Source of the DNA: Candidatus Binatia bacterium
GTDB taxonomy: Bacteria > Desulfobacterota_B > Binatia > UBA9968 > JAJDTQ01
Reading direction: 5' to 3'
Assembly: GCA_022827045.1 (NCBI GenBank)
Contig: JAJDTQ010000122.1
Location: 1-45,892 of the forward strand
DNA: 45,892 nucleotides
Shown: in pieces, positions 12,647-42,016 of the stretch
Layout: the number at the start of each line of letters is the position of its first letter
Position numbering within the stretch: position 1 is the stretch's first letter
The notes under the pieces: generated by a model
Database searches by the model: none
What the model saw: only the letters and a program-made list of their open reading frames with translations
What the model was told of the DNA's origin: nothing
Made by a program: the position numbers and the translations under genes

Positions 12647-13911
12647 CACGTCTTGAACCAATCGTCTGCCGGAACCGACAGAAACTCTTCGAGCGCCACC
12701 CCGTCACCGCCTACCACGACGGTTCGCACCGGGCGGAACCGCTTCCGAAACTCGGCTAGCCCTCGGCGGTCCGCCTGTCCTTGGTGGCTCTTGACCTCGA
12801 AGGCTACCAAGCGAGGTCCTCGTTGAAGCACAAAGTCAACTTCAGATCCGTTTTGTCGCCAGTACCAGAGGCGAGTCGGTCCCGTAGCAGAGTTCCACAA
12901 GTGTGCGCCGACAGTGCTTTCAACCAAACGCCCCCAGAACGTCCGGTCCGCTTGTGCCTCTCGGAAGGTGTAGCCGGACAAAGCGGACATCAATCCGGTG
13001 TTAAGGACGTTGAGCTTCGGGCTGGATGCCCTTTGGCGATAAATTCCGCCGCTGTAGTTCCGGAGCCCCGCCAACAGACCGACCCTTTCCATGAGATTCA
13101 GATAGCGCGCCAAAGTCGTTGTATTACCAGCGTCCTGGAGTTGGCCGAGCATTTTGGTGTAGGAGAGGATCTGTCCGGACGCTGTGACGCCGACCTCGAA
13201 CAACTGCTTCAGTAACGCGGGTTTGTCCACGCGTTGCATGGCGAGGATGTCCCGCTCGATGTTGGGCTCCACCAACGCAGTAGTTACGTAATCGTGCCAA
13301 CGGTCGTGATCACCGATGTATTCCAACGCGCCAGGATACCCGCCGAAGTAAACATACTCTGAGACGGTCAGCCCGAACGCCTTGGACATTTCGGGGAATG
13401 ACCAGTGCTTGAGGCTTATTGTCTCGAAGCGCCCGGCCAAGCTCTCCGTCAGACCGCGCTGCATCAAGAGCGGCGCCGAGCCCGATAGTATGACGTGCAG
13501 AGGCCGTTGTTCGCGTCGGTCCGCATCCCAGAGCCCCTTCACCGCTTCCGACCATCTGGGCACCTTCTGGATCTCGTCGAGGGCGAGTACATATCCGCGT
13601 TCGGACAAGTCGGCGTTCGCGCGGGCACGTTGCCACACCTCGACCAGCCACATGGCGTCAGGTTCCCGTGGTACCGAAACCAGCGTGCTGGCGGATGCCG
13701 TGTCGGCTGTTCCGCCGGGAGCCGGAAATAATCCTGCGTCGGGTTCATCGACGCTCACGAGGAGAAGGTCACGGTCGAGTGCCTTCTTCGCCTGCTCGAT
13801 CAGCGTGGTCTTGCCGACCTGCCGCGGTCCGGCGACAAGAATCAGCCGCCGGGCAGGTTCATCAAGGCGTTCTAGGAGGGTGGCGAGTTGCTTGCGCTCG
13901 AAAACGGCCAT
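12646..13911 (-). CDS. AAA_14 ATPase with DUF4143 domain
   Basis: This 421-residue protein belongs to the widespread AAA_14-DUF4143 family. Walker A is GPRQVGKTT (28-36), Walker B is VLALDEIQK, and an ILSGSAPLL sensor segment follows. The C-terminal DUF4143 part has a winged-helix-like region and a nuclease-fold core with SEVDFVLQ (Asp359) and FEVKS (Glu372, Lys374), close to a PD-(D/E)xK site. The family is common in genomic islands, and its biochemical role is poorly defined. Its TGA overlaps the ATG of the giant NACHT-nuclease, so the two should be produced together. A strong -10 box lies four bases before the ATG, which suggests a leaderless mRNA. Confidence 0.88.
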   Translation of the reverse strand: MAVFERKQLATLLERLDEPARRLILVAGPRQVGKTTLIEQAKKALDRDLLLVSVDEPDAGLFPAPGGTADTASASTLVSVPREPDAMWLVEVWQRARANADLSERGYVLALDEIQKVPRWSEAVKGLWDADRREQRPLHVILSGSAPLLMQRGLTESLAGRFETISLKHWSFPEMSKAFGLTVSEYVYFGGYPGALEYIGDHDRWHDYVTTALVEPNIERDILAMQRVDKPALLKQLFEVGVTASGQILSYTKMLGQLQDAGNTTTLARYLNLMERVGLLAGLRNYSGGIYRQRASSPKLNVLNTGLMSALSGYTFREAQADRTFWGRLVESTVGAHLWNSATGPTRLWYWRQNGSEVDFVLQRGPRLVAFEVKSHQGQADRRGLAEFRKRFRPVRTVVVGGDGVALEEFLSVPADDWFKT

Positions 13912-26295: not shown

Positions 26296-26389
26296 ACATT
26301 CCTTGGTGGTCCACGACACGGGCGGGTAGGGAGCAGCCGGTCGTGGCGGGTCGAATCGATGAATAGCGCCAGTCTCCCGATGGTATCGG

Positions 26390-27535
26390 TTACGGATATG
26401 GGTACTCAGCCGACGGAGGTTCAGCACTTCCTGTCGGAATGCGGTTGCGAGCACAGCCGATAAAATCCTCGAGCGACGACTCGAAAACCAAATGCTTACA
26501 AATTTCCTTTTCCTTGCTCCATTTCAAGAAAGCTGTTTTCGTCAAGTCTCCAAGCTCTCCGTCGATTGGACCGGGTTGGTAGTCCAAAAGCTCTAAGTGC
26601 CGCTGTATCTCCTCTAGGCGAGCTTTGTCCTTTTCTGCCTGCGTCAGCTTGCTGTTGCGCTCATCTGCCTCCGTCAACGTGCCACTAGCAACGTCATTCG
26701 GCTCGGACACGGTAGACGGAGGGGGCGCGGGCGGAGTCTCCGCCAGTTTCATCAGTTTATTTGCCAAAGCACGAAGTTCATCCTTGGCCTTCGCTGCCTG
26801 TTGCGCGGCCCTTTCCACATGCTGGTCAGCGACCTTCCCGAGGTCCTTCTTCAGATCGTTCAACGTTGCCGCCAAAGGACCCGTCGGCGCCGTCGCTGCA
26901 TTCACGACACCACGCACCTCCTTCTTTGCCGTGTCGACCGCTGCCGTTAGTTCTTCTCGAAACGCGTTGCGAGTCTCCAGAAGCTCCTCGTAAGCGGACG
27001 TTGCCTCCGTCGCCGCATCTTTGGACTCTTGCACGCCTCGTCCCACTTGCGCGAGAAGTTTCTCCGCCAAATCGGAATCATACGCTCCGGACCCCCCGAA
27101 AAAGGCTACCATGCCGGCGCCGATCATAAGTCCGGCAAAAACCAGTCCGGCGACGCGCGCGATTCCCCACTTCGAGCTGCCGCGCGGTTCCTCTCGGTGG
27201 GCCTGGAACTTCTTGTCCACCGACTCCGCGACCTCCTTGAGTGTCGCCACTGCGTTCCGGCGCGTCGCAACGTCCGGAGAGAAGGTGTTGTAAAGTTCGT
27301 CACCGACTCGTAGTCGGAAAACTGCCTCGAGCGGCCACAGATCGGCGAGCTTGTCAACGACCAAGATCACGACGAACTGACGTTGCCCGAGGCCTTGTGG
27401 AGAAGTCGCGAGTGTCACCGAAGGAAACGAACCCGGGCCACCCGCACTGGAAGCCGCGGCCTTGAACGTCTGACTGCAGTCGGTTGATTCGTAAATCGAA
27501 TGCCAGTGGTCAAAATTCGTGGCCAGTCTAAACAT
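26390..27535 (-). CDS. membrane-anchored coiled-coil protein with C-terminal peptidoglycan-binding-like domain
   Basis: This protein has about 381 residues from ATG 27535; a TTG at 27589 would add 18. An N-terminal strand-rich domain of unknown type (to about residue 110) is followed by one membrane helix (VAGLVFAGLMIGAGMVAFFGG). A long coiled coil comes next (KDAATEATSAYEELLETRN, AAQQAAKAKDELRALANKLMKLAE), then a Pro-rich hinge and a PG_binding_1-like module (IQRHLELLDYQPGPIDGELG, TKTAFLKWSKE). The topology predicts an N-terminal cytoplasmic domain and a periplasmic tail that could touch the cell wall. It lies 51 bases downstream of the membrane P-loop protein in the same direction, so the two should form one transcript under the 29255-29270 operator. 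I know no named family for the whole protein. Confidence 0.72.
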   Translation of the reverse strand: MFRLATNFDHWHSIYESTDCSQTFKAAASSAGGPGSFPSVTLATSPQGLGQRQFVVILVVDKLADLWPLEAVFRLRVGDELYNTFSPDVATRRNAVATLKEVAESVDKKFQAHREEPRGSSKWGIARVAGLVFAGLMIGAGMVAFFGGSGAYDSDLAEKLLAQVGRGVQESKDAATEATSAYEELLETRNAFREELTAAVDTAKKEVRGVVNAATAPTGPLAATLNDLKKDLGKVADQHVERAAQQAAKAKDELRALANKLMKLAETPPAPPPSTVSEPNDVASGTLTEADERNSKLTQAEKDKARLEEIQRHLELLDYQPGPIDGELGDLTKTAFLKWSKEKEICKHLVFESSLEDFIGCARNRIPTGSAEPPSAEYPYP

Positions 27536-27639
27536 ATCGCAAAACCCGACTACATGGGTGTTCAGCCCGCCGTCCGGGTTTGCGCGCAAACTGCCGGTCC
27601 GGTGCGATCGGCCTTACGAACAGAATCGGCAGACTACGA

Positions 27640-29082
27640 TCATCCATGACTCAAATCCGTGTCGACGCGGTTGACGACTGTGGGGTTATGCAGCCTCTGG
27701 ATGGCGTCCGAGAGAATGCGGTTGGTATTGTGTGAAATATCGCCATGGTAGGCAAAACAGCGCCTCTCGTCGGCCAAACCGAACTTCTTTGCCAGTTGGA
27801 GGGCCAAGGAGTTCATGTGTCGTTCGAACTGTGTCCCGAGTTCCGGCACGTCGGTACCCCAACGATTCACAAAAAGGACAAATGACCCGACACCGAAACG
27901 TTGCCGGCCAGCTACGTTGATATCGCCGGAGTCCACGTTCAGGCCGAAGAACAACGCGTAGATGTAGTCGCGTGTCTTGTTGACCTTCTCGTCGAGATTG
28001 AAATACTCGTTAAGGTCGTCGGCCGTCTCGATGTCAAAGGTTTCGCTCTTGGTGTCGAGAGCGGTGTTAAACGCGGCTTCCGGCAAGATCAGTATAAGGA
28101 CGTCGCACCGGAGGTCGAACGGGACCGTGCAGTGATCCCCTATGTTTTCGCCCGGGAAATCGAGTAGTTGCAATGAAAAACCTGTTGGGATTGCGCCGAG
28201 CGTGACGTTCTGTATTTTGTTGGCGACCTCGACGACATGCGTGGTCACTAGTCCGGCCGTGTCCGCGCTTGCCTGGCGAACCTTCTCAGCGTAGTTATTG
28301 TCATGTGACATCACCCAGTGGGTCTTCCCGGCACCGGTAGGCCCGATGGTCATCACCTGAGCCGGAGGCTGATACTGTATGGAGCGAAACATAAAACCGA
28401 CAAAACCTCGCCAAGGACTTCCGATTTTTGCGTGGTCCGTTGGCGGCGACTGATATAACTGCGATACCGCGGACGCCATGAAACCGTCACCGTCGGTGAG
28501 TTGTCGATGGAGTACATTGTAGATCCAAAAATCGTAAGTGAAGGTGACGACTGCAATCATTCCGGCCGCCCAAAGGTGTATCGTGTGTGGAGCAAATTCC
28601 ATGTCGAGAATTTGAAAACTCGTCAAGACCACGGAGAGGACCACCGAGGCTGAGAACCACACTAACCAGATGTCCTGGAGCCATACGTTCCGCACACCGC
28701 CGGTAGCGCCCAGGAGTCGGCGTTCGACGTGGTCTTCGAGTAACAGTTTCAAAATGGAAAGAAAGAAGGTCAACATGATGACGGTCGTGTATTCCTTCGT
28801 CTTCAAAAGCGCGACAGTAGCGCAGGTGACGCGGTTGGTGTTGTATGGCGGCTCGGTGGGGCAGGGGACGTCCGTCCCGAAGCTATAATAGGCTTCAACG
28901 ATGATCACGATGATCAACATTAGACCGCCCAAAGAGAGACAACGGCAGAGGAGGATTTGGCGGCGGTAGTTCTTCCAGGCGGTGTAGAAGTCCTCCCTTA
29001 TACGGGACGGTTTGGTGATAGTAATGTGTTGAACCAACATGCATGCGATTACGAGAAGACTCAAAATGGTCATAATGTTCAT
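27640..29082 (-). CDS. polytopic membrane protein with cytoplasmic P-loop GTPase-like domain
   Basis: This protein has 480 residues from ATG 29082 (a CGGAG precedes it); GTG 29142 is an alternative start. About five hydrophobic helices occupy residues 1-190. A P-loop domain follows: GPTGAGKT at 247-254, a G3-like LLDFPGEN (Asp308, Gly311), the strand CDVLILILPE and a G4-like LFVNRWGTD. This order fits a TRAFAC GTPase with a changed specificity loop. It is the first gene of a two-gene unit behind the 29255-29301 promoter/operator. The base composition is visibly more AT-rich than the surroundings, suggesting transfer. It could be the sensor or energy-using core of the operator-defined system; that role is inference. 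Confidence 0.75.
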   Translation of the reverse strand: MNIMTILSLLVIACMLVQHITITKPSRIREDFYTAWKNYRRQILLCRCLSLGGLMLIIVIIVEAYYSFGTDVPCPTEPPYNTNRVTCATVALLKTKEYTTVIMLTFFLSILKLLLEDHVERRLLGATGGVRNVWLQDIWLVWFSASVVLSVVLTSFQILDMEFAPHTIHLWAAGMIAVVTFTYDFWIYNVLHRQLTDGDGFMASAVSQLYQSPPTDHAKIGSPWRGFVGFMFRSIQYQPPAQVMTIGPTGAGKTHWVMSHDNNYAEKVRQASADTAGLVTTHVVEVANKIQNVTLGAIPTGFSLQLLDFPGENIGDHCTVPFDLRCDVLILILPEAAFNTALDTKSETFDIETADDLNEYFNLDEKVNKTRDYIYALFFGLNVDSGDINVAGRQRFGVGSFVLFVNRWGTDVPELGTQFERHMNSLALQLAKKFGLADERRCFAYHGDISHNTNRILSDAIQRLHNPTVVNRVDTDLSHG

Positions 29083-29254
29083 TGGGTACAACTCCGGGCG
29101 CTGAGGCGCAGTGGGCGGTGTGAGGCCCAGTCCGCACCACACTACCTATTTGCAAGGACCGTACGTCTGCCATGCTGTGCCGGGCGGCGTATTGGCTGCA
29201 GCCTGCGAAGTCGGCGTACTCTGCGCGCAGTAGAAGACATTGCTCCCCGTTAAC

Positions 29255-29301
29255 CGTACCGTAAGGTACGCCTTATACCGCGCGAGGTCGTCGCTTGTCA
29301 A
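29255..29301 (-). promoter_or_regulatory. promoter with CGTACC-N4-GGTACG operator, unit 1 (membrane P-loop protein)
   Basis: On the minus strand, TTGACA (29301-29296), 18 bases, TATAAG (29277-29272), one base, then the palindrome CGTACC-TTAC-GGTACG (29270-29255). The operator covers the expected transcription start. The same layout recurs at 31435-31484 and 39581-39626. The rest of the 29083-29544 spacer holds the divergent tetR promoter region and nothing else I can support. Confidence 0.85.
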
Positions 29302-29544
29302 CGGTAATCTGTCGCCGAGGGGCCGGTAGTCTGGACGACGTCGCGTGGCGAGAAGTGGCTGTATCTAGGATGAATCTGGCGGGCCATGGTTACCTTCGCG
29401 CTTCGTGGAGGGGTCATGCGACACGGCGGCGCTCTGCGCGGGGCAAACACGGGCGATATTAGATCGGTCAGTCTACTTGACAACGCCGTCCACAAACGCA
29501 ACATAGTTTTGCTTGGAATTCCCGTGCCCCGCTTTTTTTCAGTT

Positions 29545-30150
29545 ATGAAAAAATCACGTCGCGCACCGCGCCGGGCTCACATCCTTGACGTTGCCGCCGA
29601 AGTTCTGATCGAGCGGGGATACCGCGACACCACCATGCTCGAAGTGGCCCGGCGATCATCCGCGTCCAAAGAGACACTTTACGCTTGGTTCGGCGACAAG
29701 TTGGGGCTGTTCGAAGCGGTCATGCGACGAAACGCGGGGCGCGTTCGTGTAGCGCTCAACGGGCATCTCGACGGCCACACATCCGTCGAGGCGGCGCTGA
29801 CTGATTTCGGCCGGGCGTTGGTCGCGCACGTTCTCTGCGACAACGCGGTCGCCGTCACCCGGGCGGCCATTTCGGAAGCGCGCTCCGGCCCGTCGCTGGC
29901 CAGTAGCCTGTCCAAATCGGCCCACGATCCGATACGCCGCACGTTTGCCCGGTACCTGGACCAATGCCAGGCTCGTGGCGTCCTCAACGTCCGAGACTCG
30001 AACGAGGCCGTCGAAGATTTCGTCGGGCTACTCTTGGGGGATGCCCAGACCCGCCGATTGCTCGGCGTCATGGACGCACCCCATGAAGCTGACATTGACG
30101 GCAGGGCGAAGCGAGCCGTTCAGAAATTTCTACGCCTTTATCGCGTCTGA
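29545..30150 (+). CDS. TetR/AcrR family transcriptional regulator
   Basis: This protein has 201 residues from ATG 29545 (MKKSRRAPRRAHILDVAAEVL). The N-terminal helix-turn-helix is clear: LIERGYRDTTMLEVARRSSASKETLYAWFGDKLGLFEAVM. The C-terminal ligand domain (from about residue 60) matches the AefR/TetR_C group. The frame is open upstream to 29386, but that part does not look like TetR. A TTGACA at 29477-29482 may be its -35. It is divergent from the membrane P-loop gene and converges on the esterase gene. Its position beside one of three identical operators makes it the likely repressor of the set. No copy of the palindrome lies in its own promoter, so autoregulation is not obvious. Confidence 0.9.
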   Translation: MKKSRRAPRRAHILDVAAEVLIERGYRDTTMLEVARRSSASKETLYAWFGDKLGLFEAVMRRNAGRVRVALNGHLDGHTSVEAALTDFGRALVAHVLCDNAVAVTRAAISEARSGPSLASSLSKSAHDPIRRTFARYLDQCQARGVLNVRDSNEAVEDFVGLLLGDAQTRRLLGVMDAPHEADIDGRAKRAVQKFLRLYRV

Positions 30151-30160
30151 AGGGACTCCG

Positions 30161-30175
30161 GCCACTGCAGGTGGC
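30161..30175. terminator. small hairpin between convergent tetR and esterase genes
   Basis: GCCAC-TGCAG-GTGGC lies in the 31-base gap between two convergent genes. It lacks a T-tract, so it may be a weak bidirectional terminator. Confidence 0.3.
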
Positions 30176-30181
30176 GGCGCA

Positions 30182-31345
30182 TCATTCGCCCACCAGGCGC
30201 CATACGTGCGGCCAACCGTGACGGGCGGGTTCCCGGTACCGATCCCGGGAATCGGTCGGGATTCCGTCGATGCTGTGGCGTATGTCGTCGTTGACACTGC
30301 CGCAATGATAGTAATTGTGCTCGATCAGGCCGGTGACGAGTCGACTGCAATCCACTTGGTGGACCCGGTCGGGCAAATCGGCGGGCCGTTCGGCGCCGTC
30401 CCAGCCGAGCCTGTCTGTGTTGCCCCTCGTGTAAGCCGAGAGGGGCGTGGTGTCGTCGCTCCTGTTGTGGTAGATGGTCACGGCCCGAGCTATTTGGGGA
30501 AGGCGGTGGAAGGCTTCGCCGGGCTGGAATACGTCGGCGGCTACGTCGGGGGCGCAAAGGAAGACTTGGTCGAAGATCCGGGGCAGCCTGCCTCCGACGG
30601 AGTACTTCTCAGTCCGTATCAGAGCATTCTGTAGGACGAAGTTCCCCATTGAATGACAGAGCAGGTGTATGGACGGTTCACAGGGGGGTTCGTTCCTTTG
30701 TCGTGAAACTTGGCGCGCGTCGATGAGATAGTCGCGGAGCTTGAGGAGTCCGCGTCCGAACGCATAGCCGGAAACCGTGGCGTCGCTACGGTCGGAAAAA
30801 TATGACCAGGAGGGAATGACCCGGCCGTCGGACGGCCACGTGAACAGGACGACATGAACAGGCCTTGAATCATCGCCGGTTTGGTCTCCGCCGCTATGAC
30901 GGTTGAGCATGCATTGCAGGCTTGCGGCAGAAGCAACTGCTTCCCACCAACTTACGTTGAAACCGTGAACGAAAACGAGGACATGGGCTCCGTTCGTCAT
31001 TTTTTGACGTAGGTCAGCGAACATTTGCGCGGAGCCCAGTTTCGCTTGCGGCTGGGAGGACTCGTTTTCGTCCTTCAGAAGATCTTCGGGAAATGCGTTA
31101 ATGCTCGCCTCGGCCCGCTGACCGAAGAAGTAACTGGCGAGTTTCTCTCCGTTGCCGCTGCCGAATCCGCAATCGTCTTGAAGGAACTCGGCCGCCTTAC
31201 TGTGATCAAAGCGGATTGTGACTCGGCCGAATCGTAGGTTTTCGGTACCGTCTTTGCTCGGTTCCGGGCCGTATCCGGTAGGTTGCCAGCGATTTCGGCC
31301 TTGGTGGCGCCGGTTGGTCGCGTAGTACAGTTGGATGCTTGCCAT
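30182..31345 (-). CDS. alpha/beta-hydrolase, DUF900-type esterase
   Basis: This 387-residue protein has GGAGGG upstream of its ATG. It starts IQLYYATNRR, a hallmark of DUF900 hydrolases. The oxyanion-loop segment VLVFVHGFNVSWWEA and the nucleophile elbow LLCHSMGNFVLQ (Ser in HSMG) follow; a later Asp in FLCAPDVAAD or IYHNRSDDTT and a His near the C-terminus could complete the triad. No signal peptide is visible, so it is probably cytoplasmic. It is the sole gene behind the second CGTACC-N4-GGTACG promoter. A lipid- or ester-cleaving effector or processing enzyme is a reasonable guess; the substrate is unknown. Confidence 0.85.
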   Translation of the reverse strand: MASIQLYYATNRRHQGRNRWQPTGYGPEPSKDGTENLRFGRVTIRFDHSKAAEFLQDDCGFGSGNGEKLASYFFGQRAEASINAFPEDLLKDENESSQPQAKLGSAQMFADLRQKMTNGAHVLVFVHGFNVSWWEAVASAASLQCMLNRHSGGDQTGDDSRPVHVVLFTWPSDGRVIPSWSYFSDRSDATVSGYAFGRGLLKLRDYLIDARQVSRQRNEPPCEPSIHLLCHSMGNFVLQNALIRTEKYSVGGRLPRIFDQVFLCAPDVAADVFQPGEAFHRLPQIARAVTIYHNRSDDTTPLSAYTRGNTDRLGWDGAERPADLPDRVHQVDCSRLVTGLIEHNYYHCGSVNDDIRHSIDGIPTDSRDRYREPARHGWPHVWRLVGE

Positions 31346-31434
31346 GTGTCGCCCTCCTGTGTCTGAAGAGCCTAGAAACCTGGCAATCTGCTCCTTTCTT
31401 CATGAGACCCCTCGAGGTTTCTGTCTCCTTAGCC

Positions 31435-31484
31435 CGTACCTGATGGTACGTAAATGTTTACACGCAACAGGCTGACCGTGTCAA
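31435..31484 (-). promoter_or_regulatory. promoter with CGTACC-N4-GGTACG operator, unit 2 (esterase)
   Basis: On the minus strand, TTGACA (31484-31479), 18 bases, TAAACA (31460-31455), four bases, then CGTACC-ATCA-GGTACG (31450-31435). A leader of about 90 bases runs to the esterase ATG at 31345. The spacer 31346-31684 otherwise holds only the upstream region of the divergent BMP gene. Confidence 0.85.
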
Positions 31485-31684
31485 CGGCCATATACGATTG
31501 GGAGCGATGTTGGTTTGCTGTCACGATTCGTCCGACAGCTTCGAAACCGCCGTAAGCCTGTCTTTGACGATTCGCGAACGGTGGTGGTTGCCCGGAGAGG
31601 AGGAGCAGGGGAACGGCCTTTTCTTCGCGGACCGGAAATGGTTGCATAGGTCCACACGAAGGAAGATCGACAAGGAGAAGCGAT

Positions 31685-32680
31685 ATGACCAGATTTCTAC
31701 TCGCCGCCGCGGCGGCATTCCTGATTTCCTCTGCGTCCTGGGCCGCGGATTTCAAGCCGGCGGTGGTTTTCGACAAGGGCGGGAAGTTCGACAAGAGCTT
31801 CAATGAGGGGGTCTGGAACGGGGTCCGGAAGTTCGTGGACGAGACCGGCGTGGAGGTGCTGGAGTTCCAAGTCACCAACGAAGCCCAGCGCGAGCAGGCC
31901 ATGCGCCGGATGGTCCGGCGCGGCGCCACCGTGGTGCTCGCGGTGGGCTTCTCCCAGGCCGACGCCATCAACGCGGTGGCGGCGGATCACCCCGACCGGA
32001 AGTTCGCGATCATCGACGTCTTCTGGCTCGACCGGCCGAATCTCAGGCAATACGCCTTCAAGGAGCACGAGGGCTCCTACCTCGTCGGCGTCGCGGCGGC
32101 GCTCACCTCGAAGACCGGCAAGATCGGCTTCGTGGGCGGGATGGACGTACCGTTGATCCGGAAGTTCGCGTGCGGCTACGTGCAGGGGGCGAAGGAAGCG
32201 AAACGGGGCATAGACGTGCTCCGGAACATGACGGGCACGACGCCCGCGGCGTGGAACGATCCCGCGAAGGGAGCCGAGCTGGCGCGCGGCCAGATCGACC
32301 GTGGCGCCGACATCGTCTACCACGCGGCCGGCGCCACGGGGCTCGGCGTCATTCGGGCGGTAGCGGATGCCGGCAAGCTCGCCATCGGGGTCGACTCGAA
32401 CCAGAACGGGCTGGCGCCGGGGCACGTGCTCACCTCGATGCTGAAGCGGGTGGACGTGGCCGCCTACCAGACGCTGAAGGACGCCATGGACGGGAAGTTC
32501 ACCGCCGGAGTGGTGACCCTCGGCCTTGCGGAGGGAGGCGTCGACTGGGCGCAGGACGAGCACAACGCCGATCTGGTGTCCAGGGGGGTGCGCGCCGCGA
32601 TCGAACGGGCCAAGGCGGACATCATCGCCGGCAGGATCACCGTGCACAACTACGTGCGCGACTCGAAGTGTCCGTTCTGA
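31685..32680 (+). CDS. BMP family ABC transporter substrate-binding protein (Med/PnrA-like)
   Basis: This 331-residue protein has a signal peptide (MTRFLLAAAAAFLISSASWA, cleaved before ADF). It has the BMP-family layout: FDKGGKFDKSFNEGVWNG near the start, GFVGGMDVPLIRKFACGYVQGAK in the middle and GVDSNQNG near the hinge. BMP proteins bind nucleosides or nucleobases in the periplasm. It begins a four-gene ABC operon with an ATPase and two permeases. It is divergent from the esterase gene; its own promoter region shows no CGTACC palindrome, so it is probably outside that regulon. Confidence 0.94.
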   Translation: MTRFLLAAAAAFLISSASWAADFKPAVVFDKGGKFDKSFNEGVWNGVRKFVDETGVEVLEFQVTNEAQREQAMRRMVRRGATVVLAVGFSQADAINAVAADHPDRKFAIIDVFWLDRPNLRQYAFKEHEGSYLVGVAAALTSKTGKIGFVGGMDVPLIRKFACGYVQGAKEAKRGIDVLRNMTGTTPAAWNDPAKGAELARGQIDRGADIVYHAAGATGLGVIRAVADAGKLAIGVDSNQNGLAPGHVLTSMLKRVDVAAYQTLKDAMDGKFTAGVVTLGLAEGGVDWAQDEHNADLVSRGVRAAIERAKADIIAGRITVHNYVRDSKCPF

Positions 32681-32731
32681 CGGAGAGCGGATTCGCGTGG
32701 TCCCTTCCCGGCCTGCTGGAGGGCGTCTCGG

Positions 32732-34258
<1,527 letters not shown>

Positions 34259-34261
34259 TGC

Positions 34262-34360
34262 GTCCTTCGACTTCGCTCGGTAGACCTCGCTACGCTCAGG
34301 ACGAACGGAAGGTAGCTTCAAGCCGTTCGTCCTGAGCGTAGCGAAGCGAAGTCGAAGGAC
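34262..34360. repeat. large inverted-repeat element inside the ABC operon
   Basis: The outer arms are GTCCTTCGACTTCGCT (34262-34277) and its complement (34345-34360). The inner 22-bp arms are at 34287-34308 and 34323-34344 and share the GTCCTGAGC motif with 3753-3780. The element can fold into one long hairpin on RNA. It lies between the ATPase and first permease genes. Confidence 0.85.
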
Positions 34361-34365
34361 GCCAT

Positions 34366-35478
34366 TTGACGCAGGACCCCGGGATACCGTTACCCCGCTG
34401 GCTGGAAATCTTCGTCGTCCCGCTGGTCAACCTGGCCCTGGCGCTGTTGGTGGTGGCGCTGGTGTTCGTCGCCATCGGCGAGGATCCGTTCCGGGCTCTG
34501 GCTGTGATGGCGCAGGGCGCCTTCGTCTATCCCGGTTCCCTCGGCTACACCCTTTACTACACCACCAACTTCATCTTCACCGGCCTCGCGGTGGCGGTGG
34601 CCTTCCACGCCATGCTGTTCAACATCGGCGGAGAGGGGCAGGCCACGTTCGGCGGGCTCGGCGTCGCCCTGATCTGCCTCGCGCTCGACCCGTTCCTGCC
34701 CGGTGTCTTGGTGATCCTGCTGGCCATCGGCGGCGCAGCGGCGTTCGGGGCCGCCTGGGCGTTCATCCCGGGCTGGCTCCAGGCCCACCGCGGCAGCCAT
34801 ATCGTGATCACCACCATCATGTTCAACTTCATCGCCGCTGGACTCCTGGTCTGGCTGCTCTCGGGCATGCTGATGATGTCTGGGCAGGGTTCGCCTCAGA
34901 CCAGGAGCTTCGACGAGGCTACGTGGCTTCCGTTCGTCCATGACATCCTGCGCGTGGCCGGGCTGGAGGCCGAGCGCTCGCCGTTGAACATTTCCTTCTT
35001 CATCGCCCTCGCGGCCTGCGTCGGCGTCTGGCTGCTGATCTGGCGCACCAAGTTCGGCTATGCCCTGCGCACCATGGGTCACTCGGAGCCGGCGGCGGTC
35101 TACGCGGGGATCCCGGTGCAGCGAATCACCGTGCTGGCCATGGCGATTTCGGGCGCGCTGGCCGGCTGCATGGCATTGAACGAGGTCCTGGGAGCCCAGC
35201 ACAGGCTCGTCCTCAACTTCTCGGCCGGCTACGGCTTCACCGGGATCGCGGTGGCGTTGATGGGACGCAACCATCCCGTGGGGATCGTCATGGCGGCACT
35301 CCTGTTCGGAGCGCTCTACCAGGGAGGCGCGGAGCTCGACTTCGAGTTCAGGTCCGTCACCAGCGAAATGGTGCTGGTGATCCAGGGATTGATCATCCTG
35401 TTCTCGGGTGCGCTCGCGCACATGCCGGTGCCCTGGCTTGCCTGCCTGACCGACCGGTGGAGGCCGACCGATGCTTGA
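34366..35478 (+). CDS. ABC transporter permease (nucleoside type, YufP-like)
   Basis: This protein has 370 residues, starting at TTG 34366 right after the repeat element, with no ATG near. It has about nine to ten hydrophobic helices typical of the BPD_transp_2 family. Conserved segments are AMLFNIGGEGQATFGGLG near the start and FTGIAVALMGRNHPVGIVMAALLFGALYQGG in the loop that contacts the ATPase. It overlaps the second permease by 8 bases, a sign of coupled translation. Together the four genes form a nucleoside or nucleobase importer. Confidence 0.92.
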   Translation: MTQDPGIPLPRWLEIFVVPLVNLALALLVVALVFVAIGEDPFRALAVMAQGAFVYPGSLGYTLYYTTNFIFTGLAVAVAFHAMLFNIGGEGQATFGGLGVALICLALDPFLPGVLVILLAIGGAAAFGAAWAFIPGWLQAHRGSHIVITTIMFNFIAAGLLVWLLSGMLMMSGQGSPQTRSFDEATWLPFVHDILRVAGLEAERSPLNISFFIALAACVGVWLLIWRTKFGYALRTMGHSEPAAVYAGIPVQRITVLAMAISGALAGCMALNEVLGAQHRLVLNFSAGYGFTGIAVALMGRNHPVGIVMAALLFGALYQGGAELDFEFRSVTSEMVLVIQGLIILFSGALAHMPVPWLACLTDRWRPTDA

Positions 35479-36505
35479 GGCTTGGGTCGACACCCTCCGC
35501 ATCCTCGACGGGACGCTCCGGCTGGCGACGCCGCTGATCCTTTGCGCCGCCGCCGGGCTGGTCTCCGAGCGGTCGGGGATCATCGACATCGGCCTGGAGG
35601 GCAAGCTCCTGGCGGGGGCTTTCGCTGCTGCGGCGGCCGCGAGCCTGACCGGCTCCCCCTGGATCGGACTCGCCGCAGCGGTGGGAGTCGCGGTCTTCTT
35701 CGCCCTTGTGCACGGGTTCGCCTGCATCTCCCATCACGGCGAACAGATCATTTCCGGGGTAGCCGTCAACATCCTCGCGGCCGGGCTGACGGTGGTGGTC
35801 GGCATCGCGATCTTCCGGCAGGGCGGCCAGACGCCGCTGCTCGGGCCGGCGGAGCGGTTCGGCCCCATCCAGCTTCCCGGGGTGGACGCGGTGGCGGAGG
35901 TGCCGGGGGCGGGACCGCTCTATGCCGAGCTGATCTCAGGCCACAACGTATTGGTGTATCTCGCCCTGGTGGCGGTCCTTGGGGTCTGGTGGCTGCTCTA
36001 TCGCACGACCTTCGGGTTGAGGCTTCGGGCGGTGGGCGAAGCGCCGGAGGCCGTGGATACGGCCGGGGTTTCGGTCCCCTGGCAGCGCTACCGGGCCGTG
36101 GTCATCGCCGGCGTTCTGTGCGGCATCGCCGGGGCCTATCTCTCGACCGCCCACGGCGCCGGCTTCGTGCGCGAGATGTCGGCGGGAAAGGGCTTCATCG
36201 CCCTCGCCGCGATGATCTTCGGCAAGTGGCGTCCGGGCCTTGCGCTCCTGGCCTGTCTCCTCTTCGGCTTCCTCGACACGATCACGCCGAGGCTCGAAGG
36301 CGTGCGCCTGACGTGTTCCGACGGGAAGGCCGTCGAACTCCTCTTCACGCTGCTCGGCAGCGCCTGCGACGGCGCACCGCTCAGGCTACCCACCGCGCTG
36401 ATCCCGACTCTGCCGTACGTCTTCACGGTGATTCTGCTCGCCGGCTTCTTCGGGCGCGCCGTTCCGCCGGCCGCCCTGGGGACGCCGTACGTCAAGAAGC
36501 ACTGA
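35471..36505 (+). CDS. ABC transporter permease (nucleoside type, YufQ-like)
   Basis: This 344-residue second permease begins at ATG 35471, inside the previous stop. The family hallmark TPLILCAAAGLVSERSGIIDIGLEGKLLAGAF appears at the start, then MSAGKGFIALAAMIFGKWRPGLALLACLLFGFLD. The C-terminus ends at a helix and RAVPPAALGTPYVKKH. It is the last gene of the BMP operon. The next gene, DUF3891, is convergent after 26 bases. Confidence 0.93.
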   Translation: MLEAWVDTLRILDGTLRLATPLILCAAAGLVSERSGIIDIGLEGKLLAGAFAAAAAASLTGSPWIGLAAAVGVAVFFALVHGFACISHHGEQIISGVAVNILAAGLTVVVGIAIFRQGGQTPLLGPAERFGPIQLPGVDAVAEVPGAGPLYAELISGHNVLVYLALVAVLGVWWLLYRTTFGLRLRAVGEAPEAVDTAGVSVPWQRYRAVVIAGVLCGIAGAYLSTAHGAGFVREMSAGKGFIALAAMIFGKWRPGLALLACLLFGFLDTITPRLEGVRLTCSDGKAVELLFTLLGSACDGAPLRLPTALIPTLPYVFTVILLAGFFGRAVPPAALGTPYVKKH

Positions 36506-36531
36506 CACTGGTCAAGACGCGGTGCTCGTCG

Positions 36532-37350
36532 TCAATCGGTGATGTCGAAGTGCAACAGCGTCGCCGGAGTCTTGTAGTACGCCGCCCGGCAATCCGGTTC
36601 CGACTGGTACCGTCCGGGTTTCATCCGGCGCGTGCGGACGGAAACCCGAAGCGGCGCGACGTCAAAGGGGTAGGGGTCCATCTTGACCGAACCGTCGGCG
36701 TTGGGCGTGATACACAGCTCGACGGCGTCGTCGGGCGCGTAGGCGGCAGGGATGGGAGCCAAGCGCTCTTCCTTGAAGCCGGCGTCGCCGTACCCGTCGC
36801 AACAGAAGTAGAGCGACAGCAGGTCGAAGAGCTGCAGCATGCGGTAGTTGATCCACAGCTCGTCCTCGAAACCGGAATTTTCGGCGGCAAGGACCGCTTT
36901 GTCCTGTTGCTGCTGATCCTCCAGCTCGCGAAGCACGGTCCTGACCCCGTCGCTCAGGTCGCGGATCCGCGGCTTGGGACGGGTCAGGACGTCGTAGCGG
37001 CCGCGCCACAGGCCGGTGCGGTGCATGGAGACGAGCAGCCCGGCGTAGAGGTCATGGCCGCGCACCCAGTCCGCGTTTCGCCGGTAGGCCTTGAGCTCGG
37101 TGTCCTCGAATCCGGGGATCCGCTCACGGTGCCCGTAGGGACGACCCTTCTCCAGGTCCATCCGTGGCACGCCTTCCCACTCGCGGTATCCACTGTCGTG
37201 AAACGTGGTGGCGAAGACCATCGTGTCGTAGGGCCGGAGTCGTGCGAACCGGTCGTTGCCCCAGTGGGCGGCGAACTGCGCCGACAGCTCGGCGTGCTCT
37301 TCCTGCGTACTCACGTAGGTTGAACCGTCACCTGCTTCACGAATGACCAT
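36532..37350 (-). CDS. DUF3891 family protein
   Basis: This 272-residue soluble protein has a near-perfect ribosome site (AAAGGAGGTG) before the ATG. Recognisable DUF3891 features are the N-terminal STQEEHAELSAQFAAHWGN with a conserved His and FATTFHDSGYREWEG with the His-Asp pair. FDLLSLYFCCDGYG follows in the middle. The His/Asp pattern suggests a metal-binding HD-like helical core, but no activity is established. It lies between the BMP operon and the protease gene. Confidence 0.88.
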   Translation of the reverse strand: MVIREAGDGSTYVSTQEEHAELSAQFAAHWGNDRFARLRPYDTMVFATTFHDSGYREWEGVPRMDLEKGRPYGHRERIPGFEDTELKAYRRNADWVRGHDLYAGLLVSMHRTGLWRGRYDVLTRPKPRIRDLSDGVRTVLRELEDQQQQDKAVLAAENSGFEDELWINYRMLQLFDLLSLYFCCDGYGDAGFKEERLAPIPAAYAPDDAVELCITPNADGSVKMDPYPFDVAPLRVSVRTRRMKPGRYQSEPDCRAAYYKTPATLLHFDITD

Positions 37351-37732
37351 TCACGCACCTCCTTTACCCGCGGACTGTCCTTCTCATCTCAAATTCCTTC
37401 TCTCCGCGTCAAGGGCGGGTTGTGCCTGAGGCCCCCCGTTCTCTCTCCATCCGCCGATTGTCTCCAACCGTCCGTGGCCTACCTTTGCGGTGAGTTGCCC
37501 CAGGAAAAGATCGGTATCGGATGGTCCATGTCGAAAAGCCCTGGCGGCTACGGCTTCCGAAGGTCCCGCCGTGGGTCGGGCATCAGAACCCGAGCGGGAT
37601 TTTCTCCAGCGCGTCATATCAGGCGAGATGCGCCATGGCGCCCTGGAGGGAGTGATGATGGAGGCGGCGGCCCGGGCGTGAGGACTACCGTCGCGCCCGG
37701 GCCTACTTCGTCAACGGCTCCCGCCTTGCACG
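37351..37732. other. spacer without a supported gene
   Basis: This stretch of 382 bases holds short open frames on both strands. None has a ribosome site combined with a convincing protein pattern. Two plus-strand frames carry protein-like fragments (EPERDFLQRVISGEMRHGALEG and EDYRRARAYFVNGSRL) that could be remains of one decayed gene. No repeats or operators are seen. Confidence 0.5.
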
Positions 37733-38869
37733 TCAAGGATTCGTTGAGCCGATGATGGACACACCCAAGTTTTGGAGAATCGCGTTGATATCTATCGCGT
37801 ACGTCCAGTTTTCCTGCATACGTCCGTGACGGAGCTTCTCGCGCCATCCTCCCCATAACAGCGCGACTGGCCGGTGGTGGTCGTCGTCGGTGACAATGAG
37901 TTTTCCGCTATCTCCCTTGTCGCTGAACTGTTCGCCGTCTTCTCCAACAATCAGGTAGTCCGTATACTCTTTCATGACAGGATTGGCCCATGTTTCGACA
38001 GTCCAGCTGTAAGCAAACGCTGCGATGTGTCCCCTCTGAAATGATCTGGTTCGACCAACCGCAACAACCGGAGTGCCGAGCGGACCCAGGGTGTCCAAGT
38101 CGAGAGCGAGGGGGTCACCGAGTGTTGCCAACACGACGTCGTCGTTGTCGTTGACCAGCGGTAAACGTGGCTCGATATCCGACAAGGGAAAACCGGTCAG
38201 CAGTTCAGCGAACGCACAGTCAATTGTGAAATAAGCTTGCGGATCGTTCACGACTCCCGGAAATCGCACGTGGTCGGCAATTCGTTCAACGCCATGCTTC
38301 ACGCGGCCAAGTTCAATCCCGCCGGGTTCCGGAAACTCCAGCACGTCACCAACCGTGCCGGCTACGTGTTTGTTCGTGATGAACCCGACGTTCCCCGAAG
38401 CGTCTTGCGCGAAACAACCCAGCGTCCCGTACCAGCCGTCGGGGTGATAGAGCTGAGCGCCGGGCATGACGGCTTCAGTCCAACCCCTCAACTGCTCCAA
38501 CAGAATCACGCGGCCGCGACTCGAAAGCGACGGCGGCCCCAACAAGTCCTGTCTGGCAACCAGATTCACTGAACCGTAGCTTGCATCGGCAACGTCCAAC
38601 AAATTCACGTCGTAGTAAGAGTCGTACTTGCCGCCTTCGACCACATCCAACGGACAACGCAGCCCCCCCGGAGCCTCGATCTCGTCCTTGATGACCTGGG
38701 CACTGGGTAACCATTTCTTGTGTACCTTGCGTGGGACGAACACGATGACACACGGTTCTCCATCACCGTTCTTCAATCCCAGTGCGCTGCCGAGGTTATG
38801 AGTAATGGAGTCAATGTAGTCACGGTTGTGGTCCCGCAGCATCAATAGCTCTCGCAGGGTCTCCGCCAT
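37733..38869 (-). CDS. trypsin-like serine protease, no signal peptide
   Basis: This 378-residue protein is preceded by GGAGG. The chymotrypsin-fold triad is visible: His168 in FITNKHVAG, Asp217 in IDCAFAEL and Ser321 in SDKGDSGKL. The first 100 residues are an extra N-terminal domain with no signal peptide or membrane helix, so the protease should stay in the cytoplasm, unlike most bacterial trypsins. It follows the lipoprotein gene by 153 bases in the same direction and is probably in the third operator-controlled unit. Cytoplasmic trypsin-like proteases occur as effectors in NTPase-dependent conflict systems; here that role is inference. Confidence 0.82.
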   Translation of the reverse strand: MAETLRELLMLRDHNRDYIDSITHNLGSALGLKNGDGEPCVIVFVPRKVHKKWLPSAQVIKDEIEAPGGLRCPLDVVEGGKYDSYYDVNLLDVADASYGSVNLVARQDLLGPPSLSSRGRVILLEQLRGWTEAVMPGAQLYHPDGWYGTLGCFAQDASGNVGFITNKHVAGTVGDVLEFPEPGGIELGRVKHGVERIADHVRFPGVVNDPQAYFTIDCAFAELLTGFPLSDIEPRLPLVNDNDDVVLATLGDPLALDLDTLGPLGTPVVAVGRTRSFQRGHIAAFAYSWTVETWANPVMKEYTDYLIVGEDGEQFSDKGDSGKLIVTDDDHHRPVALLWGGWREKLRHGRMQENWTYAIDINAILQNLGVSIIGSTNP

Positions 38870-39022
38870 CGTAAGCGTCCTCCGTTTCGGTTGGATTGGA
38901 GATCAGGAAGGTGCATCCAGCTAGCCGCTTCATTCGATGATCGGGATCCGGACGCGACCATCAACACGGTTGGACGGGCATAGCCGATATCAAGCACCAT
39001 AGAGACAGATTTGCACGACAAC

Positions 39023-39559
39023 TTATTTCCGTTTTGAGGGATCCTTCTTCCGTATTTTCTGTATGTTCTTGAAACGTTCGGCGTCATTCTCTGTCACCGC
39101 CATCCCTTCCATAGCTTTATTGAGGCTATCCGGCTTGTCGTAGCCGAGCGTATTGTTAGGGAGACATGCCGGATTGTACATCAGGATCTCCACGGTGTTT
39201 CCGCGTTCGGCAGCAGCTTCACCGCTGCGCTCGATATTCGCCTTGGCAGCCGGATCGAGGGGTGTCGTCTCGACGACTCTTGGTTTGGTGGACAAGTCGA
39301 CCACCACCTTGCCGGCATCCTTTGCGCTAGCTTTCACGTCGAGGCTCACCGTGATTTTACAAGGATATACTCCGAGGACCTTGTCTCTCAGCTCCGCATC
39401 CAGGTCCGCGAACCCCTTGCCGATATCTTTCAGCGCTTCCGACACGGTGACATCTTGGGGTTCGACCACGTCACTCGGAAACCAGCTTGCGCACGCTGAC
39501 AGGAAGGGTACAGCAAGCACACTCACCATCGTGTGCATTATGGTTCGTCGCCTGATCAT
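39023..39559 (-). CDS. predicted lipoprotein, unknown function
   Basis: This protein has 178 residues from ATG 39559, chosen because GGAGGG lies just upstream. The N-terminus MIRRRTIMHTMVSVLAVPFLSAC ends in a lipobox (LSAC, Cys23), so it is lipid-anchored. The mature part starts with helix-like EALKDIGKGFADLDAELRDK, then a strand region (CKITVSLDVKASAKDAGKVVVDLS). It has another Cys (NPACLPNN) and a very basic tail (KNIQKIRKKDPSKRK). It is the first gene behind the third CGTACC-N4-GGTACG promoter. No family is recognised. Confidence 0.78.
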   Translation of the reverse strand: MIRRRTIMHTMVSVLAVPFLSACASWFPSDVVEPQDVTVSEALKDIGKGFADLDAELRDKVLGVYPCKITVSLDVKASAKDAGKVVVDLSTKPRVVETTPLDPAAKANIERSGEAAAERGNTVEILMYNPACLPNNTLGYDKPDSLNKAMEGMAVTENDAERFKNIQKIRKKDPSKRK

Positions 39560-39580
39560 GGGGCCCTCCAACGTAAATGC

Positions 39581-39626
39581 CGTACCTAATGGTACGACTT
39601 CTACACCCAACGGCCCCTTGTGTCAA
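39581..39626 (-). promoter_or_regulatory. promoter with CGTACC-N4-GGTACG operator, unit 3 (lipoprotein/protease)
   Basis: On the minus strand, TTGACA (39626-39621), 17 bases, TAGAAG (39603-39598), one base, then CGTACC-ATTA-GGTACG (39596-39581), 21 bases before the lipoprotein ATG. It shares the spacing and elements of the sites at 29255 and 31435. Between it and 39809 nothing else is supported. Confidence 0.85.
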
Positions 39627-39808
39627 GCTTGGTTTTCCGGCCATCACGTATCGCCCGCGGCCTTGATGTGCCGGGCACGGTTGCGACACGCGCAAGGCTC
39701 CTGCGCTCGGACGAGTTCTGCCACTCGTGCAGCGCGTGTGCGGCTGAACAGGCTGTCGAACGCTGGGGCTTCCCGGAACGTCACCGGGCCTGCCCGTCCA
39801 CCCGTTGC

Positions 39809-42016
39809 TCAGTCGCTCCGGAACCGCCGCAGCACGTTGTCGATCATGCGTGAGATGTTGTTGTCGAAGTCGTTGTGGGGGAGGCTCCCGCAGAACGTAA
39901 TCGAACCCACCGAGAACACCGCGCCGCCGTTGGGCGTTTCGAAGAACACGATCTCTGAGCGGAGGAGCTCCCGCGCTATGTCCGGACGCTTGCGGTGAAG
40001 GCTCACGATCTCCTCCGGGACCAGAATATGGGTGTCGTCGGGTTCTTCGGAGCGGGCGAGCACGAGGGCGTGGGAAGGCGATCCCAGGCGCGGGTCCAGC
40101 CGGTCGAGCTCGAAGCCCGCCGCGCCGCCCCCGCTCAGGCCGAAGTCGCCAAGGACCTCGTCGTCGATGCCCTCGAAGATCCAGGCGGCGCGTGGGTCGC
40201 GGGAACCGGGCAGGCGGCGGTAGCAGGTGCCGTGGAAGTCGCCTTGCGAGATGAATCCCACTCCCGCCAGGCGCTGGGGGGCGCGACCGTTGTTTCGCCA
40301 CAGCCCGCCGTAGGCGCCGTCGAAGGCGTTGTAGTACTCCCCGGGATCCGCCGACCAAGCGCGGATTCCGGTTTCGCCGCGGCGGATCTCGACGGCGCCG
40401 GGGAACTCCGGATTCAGCGCGACGCGCCAGTAGAAGCCGTTGCCGCCGAGGTACATCAGGCGCCCGCCCTGTTGGGTGTAGTCGGTGAGGGCGTCGAGCG
40501 AACGCGGAGTGTGGTACTCCGGGTGCGTGGTCGTCATCACCACCTTGTACGGCGCGATGGCGTCGACGCCGTCGGCGTCGACGTCCTCGTCGGTGATGAC
40601 GTCGAAGTCGTGGCCCAGCGCTTCCAGCCATGCCAGCAGGTGGGTGTCGGCGGGGAAATGGCGCAGGCAGGAACCGGCCTTGGGATCCGAGTAGGCCAGG
40701 AAGCCGGAGCGCTGGTTGATGATGGGGCGAAGCCGCGACGAATAGCTCACCCCGCTGCCGTCGCTGTGGTAGTTGTAGGTCGAGATCCCGTACTCGGTAT
40801 GCTCGTCCGGCGTCCAGGGTCGAGCCCCCCAGCGCGTGACGTGCTCGCGGTAGGCGTCGTTGAGTCTGCCCCGGGCGAAGTTGGCATAGACGATGTAGGT
40901 GAAGACGGGGAGGAGCACGCAGGCGCTTGACTGGGCCCGCCCCCGCGCGGCGCGCACGAAAAAGGGCACCATGTCCTCGTCCTCGCTGGCGCGCAGGCGT
41001 ACCGCGTAGACGCCGCTCCTGAAGTCCTCCGGCACCTCGAAGCTGAAGTCGGTTTCCCAGCCGCAGTCGTAGAGGTCGTCGTCGTGGAAATGGATGGCGC
41101 CGTAGTGCTCCGGGGCGTGGCGCCAGCACATCTCCTCGCCGGTCCAGCGCGAGCCTGTCATGGCGCGCGTCGGCAGGTTGACGGTCTCGCCGTGCATCGC
41201 GTGGGGGCCGGTGTCGACGATGCGCTTCGACGAAATCTCGTGGGAGAAGTCCCATGCCGCGACGACATCCCTGCCGGAGCCGGGAGCCTCGCCGGCGGCG
41301 CGGAACGCGGCGTCCGGGTCGAGCGCCGACTCCATCACCCGCGGCGCTTCGAGCTTGCCGTTGTAGTGATCGCAAGGCGTCGACCCCGCGCGCGCCGCGA
41401 ACAGGAGATCGCCGCTCCCCGCGCAGCTCTCGCCGAACGCGGCGGCAGCGGTGACGGTGCCGGAGTCGTCGACCATCATCGCCGGCGCGAACGGCTGCTG
41501 GCCAAGCGCAAGCTCGCCCTTGTCCGCGTCGTAGCTGAGGAAGACCCGGTACCAGGCGCGGGCGCGCAATTCCTTGCCGACGCTTGCGCTGTTCGTCCCG
41601 GTGCCGTCGCTCAAGGTGGCGGCGAGCGAACCTTTCTCGTCGATCTCGAGGGTGAAGCCCGCACCGGTAGCGGCGTCGACCCGTGACACCAGGCCCTGCC
41701 GGCGGGGGAGGACCGGCAGGGTAGGCCAGATGATCGCCGTCACCGTGAAGCTCCCAAGGGCGTCCAGGGGCGCGGCGCAGGCAATTCGCACGTAGGAGCC
41801 GCTGTGGATCGGCTGCACCCGCGACGGGTAGCGCCCGGCAAAGGCGGCGTCGACGGGTTCCTCGCGGATGCCGGGGCCGTCCGGGTTGGGGTCCCCGCTG
41901 ATGACGCGCACCAGGCGCGCCTCGTAGTCCTCGGACGCGGCGGAGCTCACCTTGAACGCGATGGTTTCGCCGGGGGCTACCGAATAGCGGTCGGCATAAG
42001 CGGTGATGGGAAGCAT
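39809..42016 (-). CDS. N,N-dimethylformamidase large-subunit-like protein
   Basis: This 735-residue protein has AGGAGA before its ATG. The first 280 residues are beta-sandwich/LamG-like (ITAYADRYSVAPGETIAFKVSS; SRWTGEEMCWRHAPEHYGAIHFHDDDLYDCGW follows). The C-terminal half matches the DMFase catalytic subunit. In it, EYGISTYNYHSDGSGVSYSSR and VVMTTTHPEYHTPRSLDALTDYTQQGGRLMYLGGNGFYWRV hold the Tyr residues and Glu expected for the unusual two-Tyr/one-carboxylate iron site. No separate small-subunit gene is seen. The substrate is likely an N-substituted amide rather than strictly dimethylformamide. The gene lies 10 bases after the MDR oxidoreductase gene on the same strand. Confidence 0.88.
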   Translation of the reverse strand: MLPITAYADRYSVAPGETIAFKVSSAASEDYEARLVRVISGDPNPDGPGIREEPVDAAFAGRYPSRVQPIHSGSYVRIACAAPLDALGSFTVTAIIWPTLPVLPRRQGLVSRVDAATGAGFTLEIDEKGSLAATLSDGTGTNSASVGKELRARAWYRVFLSYDADKGELALGQQPFAPAMMVDDSGTVTAAAAFGESCAGSGDLLFAARAGSTPCDHYNGKLEAPRVMESALDPDAAFRAAGEAPGSGRDVVAAWDFSHEISSKRIVDTGPHAMHGETVNLPTRAMTGSRWTGEEMCWRHAPEHYGAIHFHDDDLYDCGWETDFSFEVPEDFRSGVYAVRLRASEDEDMVPFFVRAARGRAQSSACVLLPVFTYIVYANFARGRLNDAYREHVTRWGARPWTPDEHTEYGISTYNYHSDGSGVSYSSRLRPIINQRSGFLAYSDPKAGSCLRHFPADTHLLAWLEALGHDFDVITDEDVDADGVDAIAPYKVVMTTTHPEYHTPRSLDALTDYTQQGGRLMYLGGNGFYWRVALNPEFPGAVEIRRGETGIRAWSADPGEYYNAFDGAYGGLWRNNGRAPQRLAGVGFISQGDFHGTCYRRLPGSRDPRAAWIFEGIDDEVLGDFGLSGGGAAGFELDRLDPRLGSPSHALVLARSEEPDDTHILVPEEIVSLHRKRPDIARELLRSEIVFFETPNGGAVFSVGSITFCGSLPHNDFDNNISRMIDNVLRRFRSD

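What the first reader, a model, noticed from the sequence alone, without database searches (positions are those of the whole stretch)
29255..39626. Three promoters share one architecture and one palindromic operator, defining a local regulon
Sites at 29255-29270, 31435-31450 and 39581-39596 are CGTACC-N4-GGTACG, each directly downstream of a -10 box paired with TTGACA at 17-18 bp, and each in front of a gene with a good ribosome site. Three such matches, all correctly oriented, are unlikely by chance. The TetR gene at 29545 is the obvious candidate repressor.
Basis: partly seen in the sequence, partly recalled or inferred. Interest (0 to 1): 0.9.

Follow-up and report, generated by a model that had tools for sequence, protein, structure and literature searches.

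The report
TetR repressor and its scattered regulon
A gene switch (a TetR-type repressor) and matching 16-letter DNA sites in front of three separate, unrelated gene sets were found; related bacteria keep the switch and the sites together while the genes behind them change, so this looks like a real but conventional regulon with an unusually variable set of target genes.

Summary
CGTACC-N4-GGTACG occurs three times in the window, each 24-28 bp downstream of TTGACA. All three promoters point left, into a membrane GTPase-like gene, a DUF900 hydrolase and a putative lipoprotein. The host genome is not held, so tests were comparative. In nine genomes of a related family all 7 perfect motif copies lie 22-38 bp downstream of TTGAC; promoter-plus-motif gives 13 hits against 1 control there, 2 against 6 in the other 139 genomes of the class. 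Window-type TetRs (71-76% identical in four genomes, a 36-aa partial copy in a fifth) coincide with sites in 5 of 5; of four genomes without one, one has a site. Distant TetRs with the same recognition helix (SKE[ST]LY) carry this palindrome near their own start (22 of 25 within one mismatch, 0 of 52 with other helices); those with Asn for Lys mostly carry CGTACA-N4-TGTACG. So the TetR at 29545 is very probably the repressor. Against: paralogues with the same helix lack the site (4 of 4), the window TetR's own promoter lacks it, the Lys/Asn switch is one event, and binding is untested. A new member of a known kind.

The parts
29255..29270 (-). operator 1, CGTACCTTACGGTACG read on the minus strand
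29272..29301 (-). promoter 1: TTGACA (29296-29301), 18 bp, TATAAG (29272-29277)
   Evidence: sequence
27640..29082 (-). target 1: apparent membrane protein (N-terminal hydrophobic helices) with a C-terminal Ras-like P-loop GTPase domain (GPTGAGKT, DFPGENIGDHC)
   Evidence: mean pLDDT 70.6; best PDB matches are Sec4 and Rab GTPases; TM helices judged by eye
26390..27589 (-). probable second gene of operon 1: protein with a weak HxsA match (residues 291-363)
   Evidence: operon by spacing only (inference)
29545..30150 (+). TetR_C_7 (AefR-like) regulator, recognition helix region SSASKETLYAWF
31435..31450 (-). operator 2, CGTACCATCAGGTACG on the minus strand
31457..31484 (-). promoter 2: TTGACA (31479-31484) with weak -10
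   Evidence: sequence
30182..31345 (-). target 2: DUF900 alpha/beta hydrolase
   Evidence: orthologues
39581..39596 (-). operator 3, CGTACCATTAGGTACG on the minus strand
39598..39626 (-). promoter 3: TTGACA (39621-39626), 17 bp, TAGAAG (39598-39603)
   Evidence: sequence
39023..39559 (-). target 3: putative lipoprotein (lipobox by eye), no Pfam family, no match in 35 genomes of the order
37733..38869 (-). probable second gene of operon 3: NAL1-like protein
   Evidence: PF25608, PF25819; operon by spacing only (inference)

Best explanation
The TetR protein encoded at 29545-30150 is a dimeric repressor that binds CGTACC-N4-GGTACG. Each operator covers the predicted transcription start just downstream of a TTGACA promoter, so bound TetR blocks RNA polymerase at three separate minus-strand promoters; an unknown small ligand releases it, and the GTPase gene set, the DUF900 hydrolase and the lipoprotein/NAL1-like gene set are switched on together. 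In the family to which the host appears to belong, regulator and operator stay together while the controlled genes differ from genome to genome (DUF900, trypsin-like, tyrosinase, DUF4189, apparent membrane and secreted proteins) at a few slots between conserved metabolic genes. Shown: motif, promoter context, co-occurrence, helix-operator correspondence. Inferred: binding, repression, ligand release, operon extents.
For: Motif and promoters. All 7 perfect motif copies in 9 family genomes have TTGAC 22-38 bp upstream (one of the seven, the L015 site, led me to the family and is not independent). Promoter-plus-motif: 13 vs 1 control in the family, 2 vs 6 in the other 139 genomes of the class. 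Window-type TetR: complete in G003 (two), G010, G012, G013, partial (36 aa at a contig end) in G014; all five genomes have sites. Of the other four, G011, G016 and G017 have none and G015 (2.2 Mb) has one (Fisher p = 0.048). Helix-operator link, palindrome within one mismatch in the 200-250 bp upstream of the start: SKE[ST]LY TetRs 17 of 20 Rhizobiaceae, 2 of 2 Streptomyces, 3 of 3 further class loci; other helices 0 of 52. Without the one Streptomyces locus that was first found by the motif (L083) it is 21 of 24.
Against: No binding or expression data. Within the window's own family the helix does not predict a good site near the TetR itself: TetR-A paralogues (ASKETLY[AT]WF) 0 of 4 within three mismatches, window-type orthologues 1 of 6 within one mismatch (L066) and the other 5 only degenerate sites at -82 to -85; the window TetR has none on its own promoter. 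L020, a TetR with an SKESIYRYF helix found through the motif, has the site some 3 kb away, not at its own gene. TetR-A could bind the same sites in genomes that hold both. The Lys/Asn switch is a single event on the tree. The raw motif count in the family (7) is not far above its control (3). The sites were found with patterns that demand the core, so the invariance of GTAC in the 17 sites is largely by construction.
Confidence: 0.87

Rival explanations
1. A different regulator, most plausibly a TetR-A type paralogue encoded elsewhere in the host genome, binds the three operators; the TetR at 29545 is only a neighbour.
For: TetR-A paralogues carry nearly the same recognition helix, and the host genome is not held.
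Against: G011 has TetR-A alone and no site; G003 and G012 have sites and no TetR-A was found there (completeness not told); TetR-A genes lack the motif upstream.
Confidence: 0.08
2. The palindrome works in RNA, as a 5' hairpin or attenuator at the start of each transcript.
For: It would form a 6-bp stem with a 4-nt loop, and the copy at 39581 scored as terminator-like (9 such sites found in the region, 12.4 expected).
Against: Two related sites (G014 and one of G003) lose the innermost pair of the stem, though only that one; the same palindrome accompanies SKE-helix TetR genes elsewhere; no Rfam family at gathering threshold in 26000-42000.
Confidence: 0.03
3. Chance: three copies of a palindrome near TTGACA by coincidence.
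For: Three identical 6-bp-arm repeats of some kind arise in 7 of 60 simulated windows.
Against: Promoter context in 7 of 7 family copies and the family/class contrast.
Confidence: 0.01

Closest known systems
TetR_C_7 / AefR-like TetR regulators (Pfam PF14246; PDB 3c2b; NalC 8ke8)
   Same: Same N-terminal HTH and C-terminal domain; 3c2b matches over residues 7-199 and has an SKESLYKWF helix.
   Different: No operator or ligand for 3c2b was found in my one search (no paper); the window TetR appears to control several scattered gene sets.
Rhizobiaceae SKE-helix TetRs, beside ilvC (ketol-acid reductoisomerase) in 5 of 5 loci looked at (L120, L122, L128, L141 by Pfam, L136 by reading)
   Same: Same type of helix and same palindrome near the start.
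   Different: Sites sit near their own start, often as overlapping copies; the neighbour is a metabolic gene.
Streptomyces (L083) and alphaproteobacterial (L143, L144, L147) SKE-helix TetRs
   Same: ASKETLY helix and at least one perfect CGTACC-N4-GGTACG copy each.
   Different: Two copies 26-28 bp apart (three in L147, with a wider step too), one or more of them imperfect; the window has single sites spread over 10 kb.

Membership tests
TetR family transcriptional regulator | TetR_N DNA-binding domain | tested here: met
   PF00440 50.3 bits, cut-off 24
TetR family transcriptional regulator | TetR-type C-terminal domain | tested here: met
   PF14246 79.9 bits, cut-off 22
TetR family transcriptional regulator | binds a short palindromic operator | tested here: inconclusive
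   Comparative support; no binding assay
TetR family transcriptional regulator | released by a small ligand | not testable with these tools
   No ligand information
Local TetR regulon | regulator and operator co-occur across genomes | tested here: met
   Sites in 5 of 5 genomes with a window-type TetR (one partial), 1 of 4 without
Local TetR regulon | operator on the regulator's own promoter (autoregulation) | tested here: not met
   Window: nearest operator about 277 bp upstream on the divergent promoter; 5 of 6 orthologues have degenerate sites at -82 to -85, one a site at -151
Known anti-phage defence system | match to PADLOC models | tested here: not met
   0 families for six proteins of the region

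The most novel reading that the evidence does not exclude
A regulator-centred cargo exchange system: unrelated envelope, secreted and hydrolase genes are swapped in and out of fixed slots between conserved metabolic genes, each arriving with or acquiring the same TTGACA-plus-operator cassette, so that one resident TetR silences whatever is captured; where the TetR has decayed (G016) the cargo gene is decayed too and no operator remains.
Probability: 0.3. Interest if true: 0.68.

Novelty: new member of a known kind. Interest (0 to 1): 0.5.

Why it matters
It gives an uncultured lineage a testable regulon, links a TetR recognition helix to its operator in the window's lineage, alphaproteobacteria and Streptomyces (with a Lys/Asn to C/A correspondence that can be tested in a laboratory reporter system), and offers a case in which targets turn over while regulator and operator persist.

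Tried and rejected
Genome-wide scan of the host: not possible, no whole genome held. Pattern scan of viral contigs: 6 loci, 5 of them one phage lineage with the pattern before a gene that reads like a helicase; unproven. Pattern scan of genome contigs: 20 loci; by my own estimate not more than chance (no control was run), and 3 of the 20 hold a TetR homologous to the window's (L009, L014, L020). Plasmid searches: lipoprotein and GTPase no match; DUF900 119 records, all under 60% identity. Known defence systems for the six proteins: none. RNA families: none. Literature: searches were seen as search listings only; no paper was opened. The string GTACCGTACGGTAC is in no paper of that library; of 301 papers holding the three letter strings I saw 15 titles and abstract starts, none on this operator. 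That the operator is undescribed is therefore not established.

Rows left out of counts: L034 (same genome as L014, found through the motif; 0 mismatches) is not among the 20 Rhizobiaceae; L020 (found through the motif, site not at its own gene) is in no count; the TetRs of the window's own family are counted apart; L101 of the 30 Streptomyces loci gave no tblastn row. Scored were only the loci that the tools returned: 29 of 30 Streptomyces, 30 of 30 Rhizobiaceae (both best-first parts of longer match lists) and 18 of 18 of the class search at E 1e-22 or better. In one search my group labels were off by one position and all rows fell in one group; I used the tree, not the group statistics. Organism names of the G genomes are inferred from the titles of the loci through which they were reached.

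Full report
Observation. The window holds three perfect copies of CGTACC-N4-GGTACG, at 29255, 31435 and 39581; the only further copy with up to two mismatches has two. Read on the minus strand each lies 24-28 bp downstream of a perfect TTGACA and upstream of a minus-strand gene: a membrane GTPase-like protein (27640-29082), a DUF900 alpha/beta hydrolase (30182-31345) and a putative lipoprotein (39023-39559). The finding did not say that all three promoters are on the minus strand. The -10 elements are good, weak and fair respectively, and the strict promoter scan reported none of them. Chance alone is a weak argument either way: 7 of 60 simulated windows hold some 6-bp-arm repeat three times, but this one appeared once in all 60 together.

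Related genomes. The host genome is not held. A scan of one genome for each of 84,980 species for TTGACA-N24-28-motif gave 20 loci. One, L015, titled Deltaproteobacteria bacterium isolate RHO3_bin_65, lies in a genome (G003) with four perfect motif copies against none for the reversed control pattern. G003 shares Bmp (95% identical), DMF-like, QOR, DUF3891, DUF900 and TetR genes with the window, so I infer that the window comes from the same family. In the nine genomes of that family there are 7 perfect motif copies (control 3), and all 7 have TTGAC 22-38 bp upstream; one of these, the L015 site, was selected for that. The pattern TTGACN(22-38)CGTACN6GTACG has 13 matches and 1 control match in the nine genomes, but 2 and 6 in the remaining 139 genomes of the class.

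Co-occurrence with the TetR. Orthologues of the window TetR fall into two clades: the window's own (71-76% identity) in G003 (two), G010, G012 and G013; and a second, TetR-A (60-65%), in G010, G011, G013 and G014, next to the TPP-enzyme gene. G014 also has a 36-aa piece at a contig end, 83% identical and with a site at -83 like the window type, which was too short for the tree. These five genomes have 5, 3, 2, 1 and 1 promoter-operator sites. G011 (TetR-A only), G017 (no TetR match) and G016 (a remnant of about 75 aa, clade undetermined, near an 89-aa DUF900 remnant) have none; G016 was reached on a contig of 4.2 Mb, so its lack of sites is unlikely to be a gap. G015, 2.2 Mb, has one site near a contig end and no TetR match. 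Fisher's exact p is 0.048, on small numbers.

Targets. Of seven full-length DUF900 orthologues in the fetched loci, four (G003, G010, G012, G013) start 42-43 bp downstream of an operator with at most one mismatch, one (second copy of G010) has a two-mismatch site about 355 bp upstream, one (G015) lies behind a DUF4189 gene with a one-mismatch site, and one (other copy of G003) has none. In the four, 11 of 12 arm columns and 1 of 4 centre columns are identical, against 59% of flanking columns; in three trypsin-like genes 11 of 12, 0 of 4 and 33%. The sites had been picked for likeness to the motif, so arm conservation is partly by construction; the free centre is not. Other sites precede trypsin-like genes (G003 twice, G015), a tyrosinase (G014), an apparently secreted protein (G010), two apparently membrane-bound proteins (G003) and a two-gene set (G012); secretion and membrane calls are by eye. 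The intervals between conserved genes hold different cargo in different genomes. The window's lipoprotein has no match in the 35 genomes of the order searched, a search without a positive control. The GTPase model (mean pLDDT 70.6) has a Ras-like domain whose best PDB matches are Sec4 and Rab GTPases.

Helix and operator. The window TetR has the helix region SSASKETLYAWF. Among TetR homologues from Streptomyces (29 of 30 loci scored), Rhizobiaceae (30 of 30) and a class-wide search around Pararhizobium (18 of 18), those with SKE[ST]LY have CGTACC-N4-GGTACG within one mismatch upstream of their start in 2 of 2, 17 of 20 and 3 of 3 cases; the remaining three have two mismatches. Of 52 with other helices none does. 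L083, one of the two Streptomyces cases, was first met through the motif. Those with SN[EQ]T[LM]Y have CGTACA-N4-TGTACG within two mismatches in 9 of 10 and 3 of 4 cases; the exceptions, L113 and L159, have CGTAAC or CGTAAT forms. On the tree the Asn group is one clade, so this is one change. Against a simple rule: the four TetR-A paralogues share the helix but have no such palindrome upstream, 5 of 6 window-type orthologues have only a degenerate site at -82 to -85, and the window TetR has none on its own promoter. L020, with an SKESIYRYF helix, has the motif about 3 kb from its gene.

Mechanism. The operators overlap the expected start of transcription, a position typical of repressors (established knowledge). 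I infer a TetR dimer that represses three gene sets and is released by an unknown ligand. Neighbours of distant relatives are mixed: ilvC in five of five Rhizobiaceae SKE loci looked at (four by Pfam, L136 by reading), a divergent anthrone-oxygenase family gene (PF08592) in one Streptomyces and two SNE loci, and in L143 a gene that reads like a LysE exporter. None of this fixes the ligand.

Rivals. A paralogous TetR elsewhere in the host is the main one; it is weakened by G011 (TetR-A, no sites) and by G003 and G012 (sites, no TetR-A found). An RNA hairpin is disfavoured mainly because the palindrome goes with SKE-helix TetR genes elsewhere; two variants lose only the innermost pair of the stem.

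Verdict. A real TetR regulon of a known kind, well supported by comparison and untested at the bench. What is less ordinary is the turnover of its targets around a constant regulator and operator.

Noticed in passing
window 8585-13911 (-): Low-GC stretch with a 1358-aa ORF with a P-loop near its N-terminus (by eye; no PADLOC match) and a 421-aa protein matching the PADLOC candidate defence family PDC-S01 (3.8e-158).
   Followed up: partly
window 37733-38869 (-): Bacterial relative of the plant NARROW LEAF 1 protein (both NAL1 domains), in the gene set behind operator 3.
   Followed up: no
L001, L002, L003, L005, L006: One phage lineage carries TTGACA-N24-CGTACCGTGTGGTACG before a gene that reads like a helicase.
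   Followed up: no
L008 2817-2898 and L021 1968-2049: Two Krumholzibacteriia genomes keep a symmetrical arrangement, TTGACA on both sides of a single CGTACC-N4-GGTACG.
   Followed up: no
L067 (G016): Remnants of a TetR (about 75 aa) and DUF900 (89 aa) among the conserved neighbours, with no promoter-operator match in the genome: looks like joint decay of the regulon.
   Followed up: partly
L061, L063, L064, L065: TetR-A paralogues directly upstream of the TPP-enzyme gene; three of four have an ACCGTAC core upstream instead of the operator.
   Followed up: partly
L143 2137-2180: Alphaproteobacterial TetR 54% identical to the window's, with two operator copies 28 bp apart before a divergent gene and a LysE-like gene.
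   Followed up: partly
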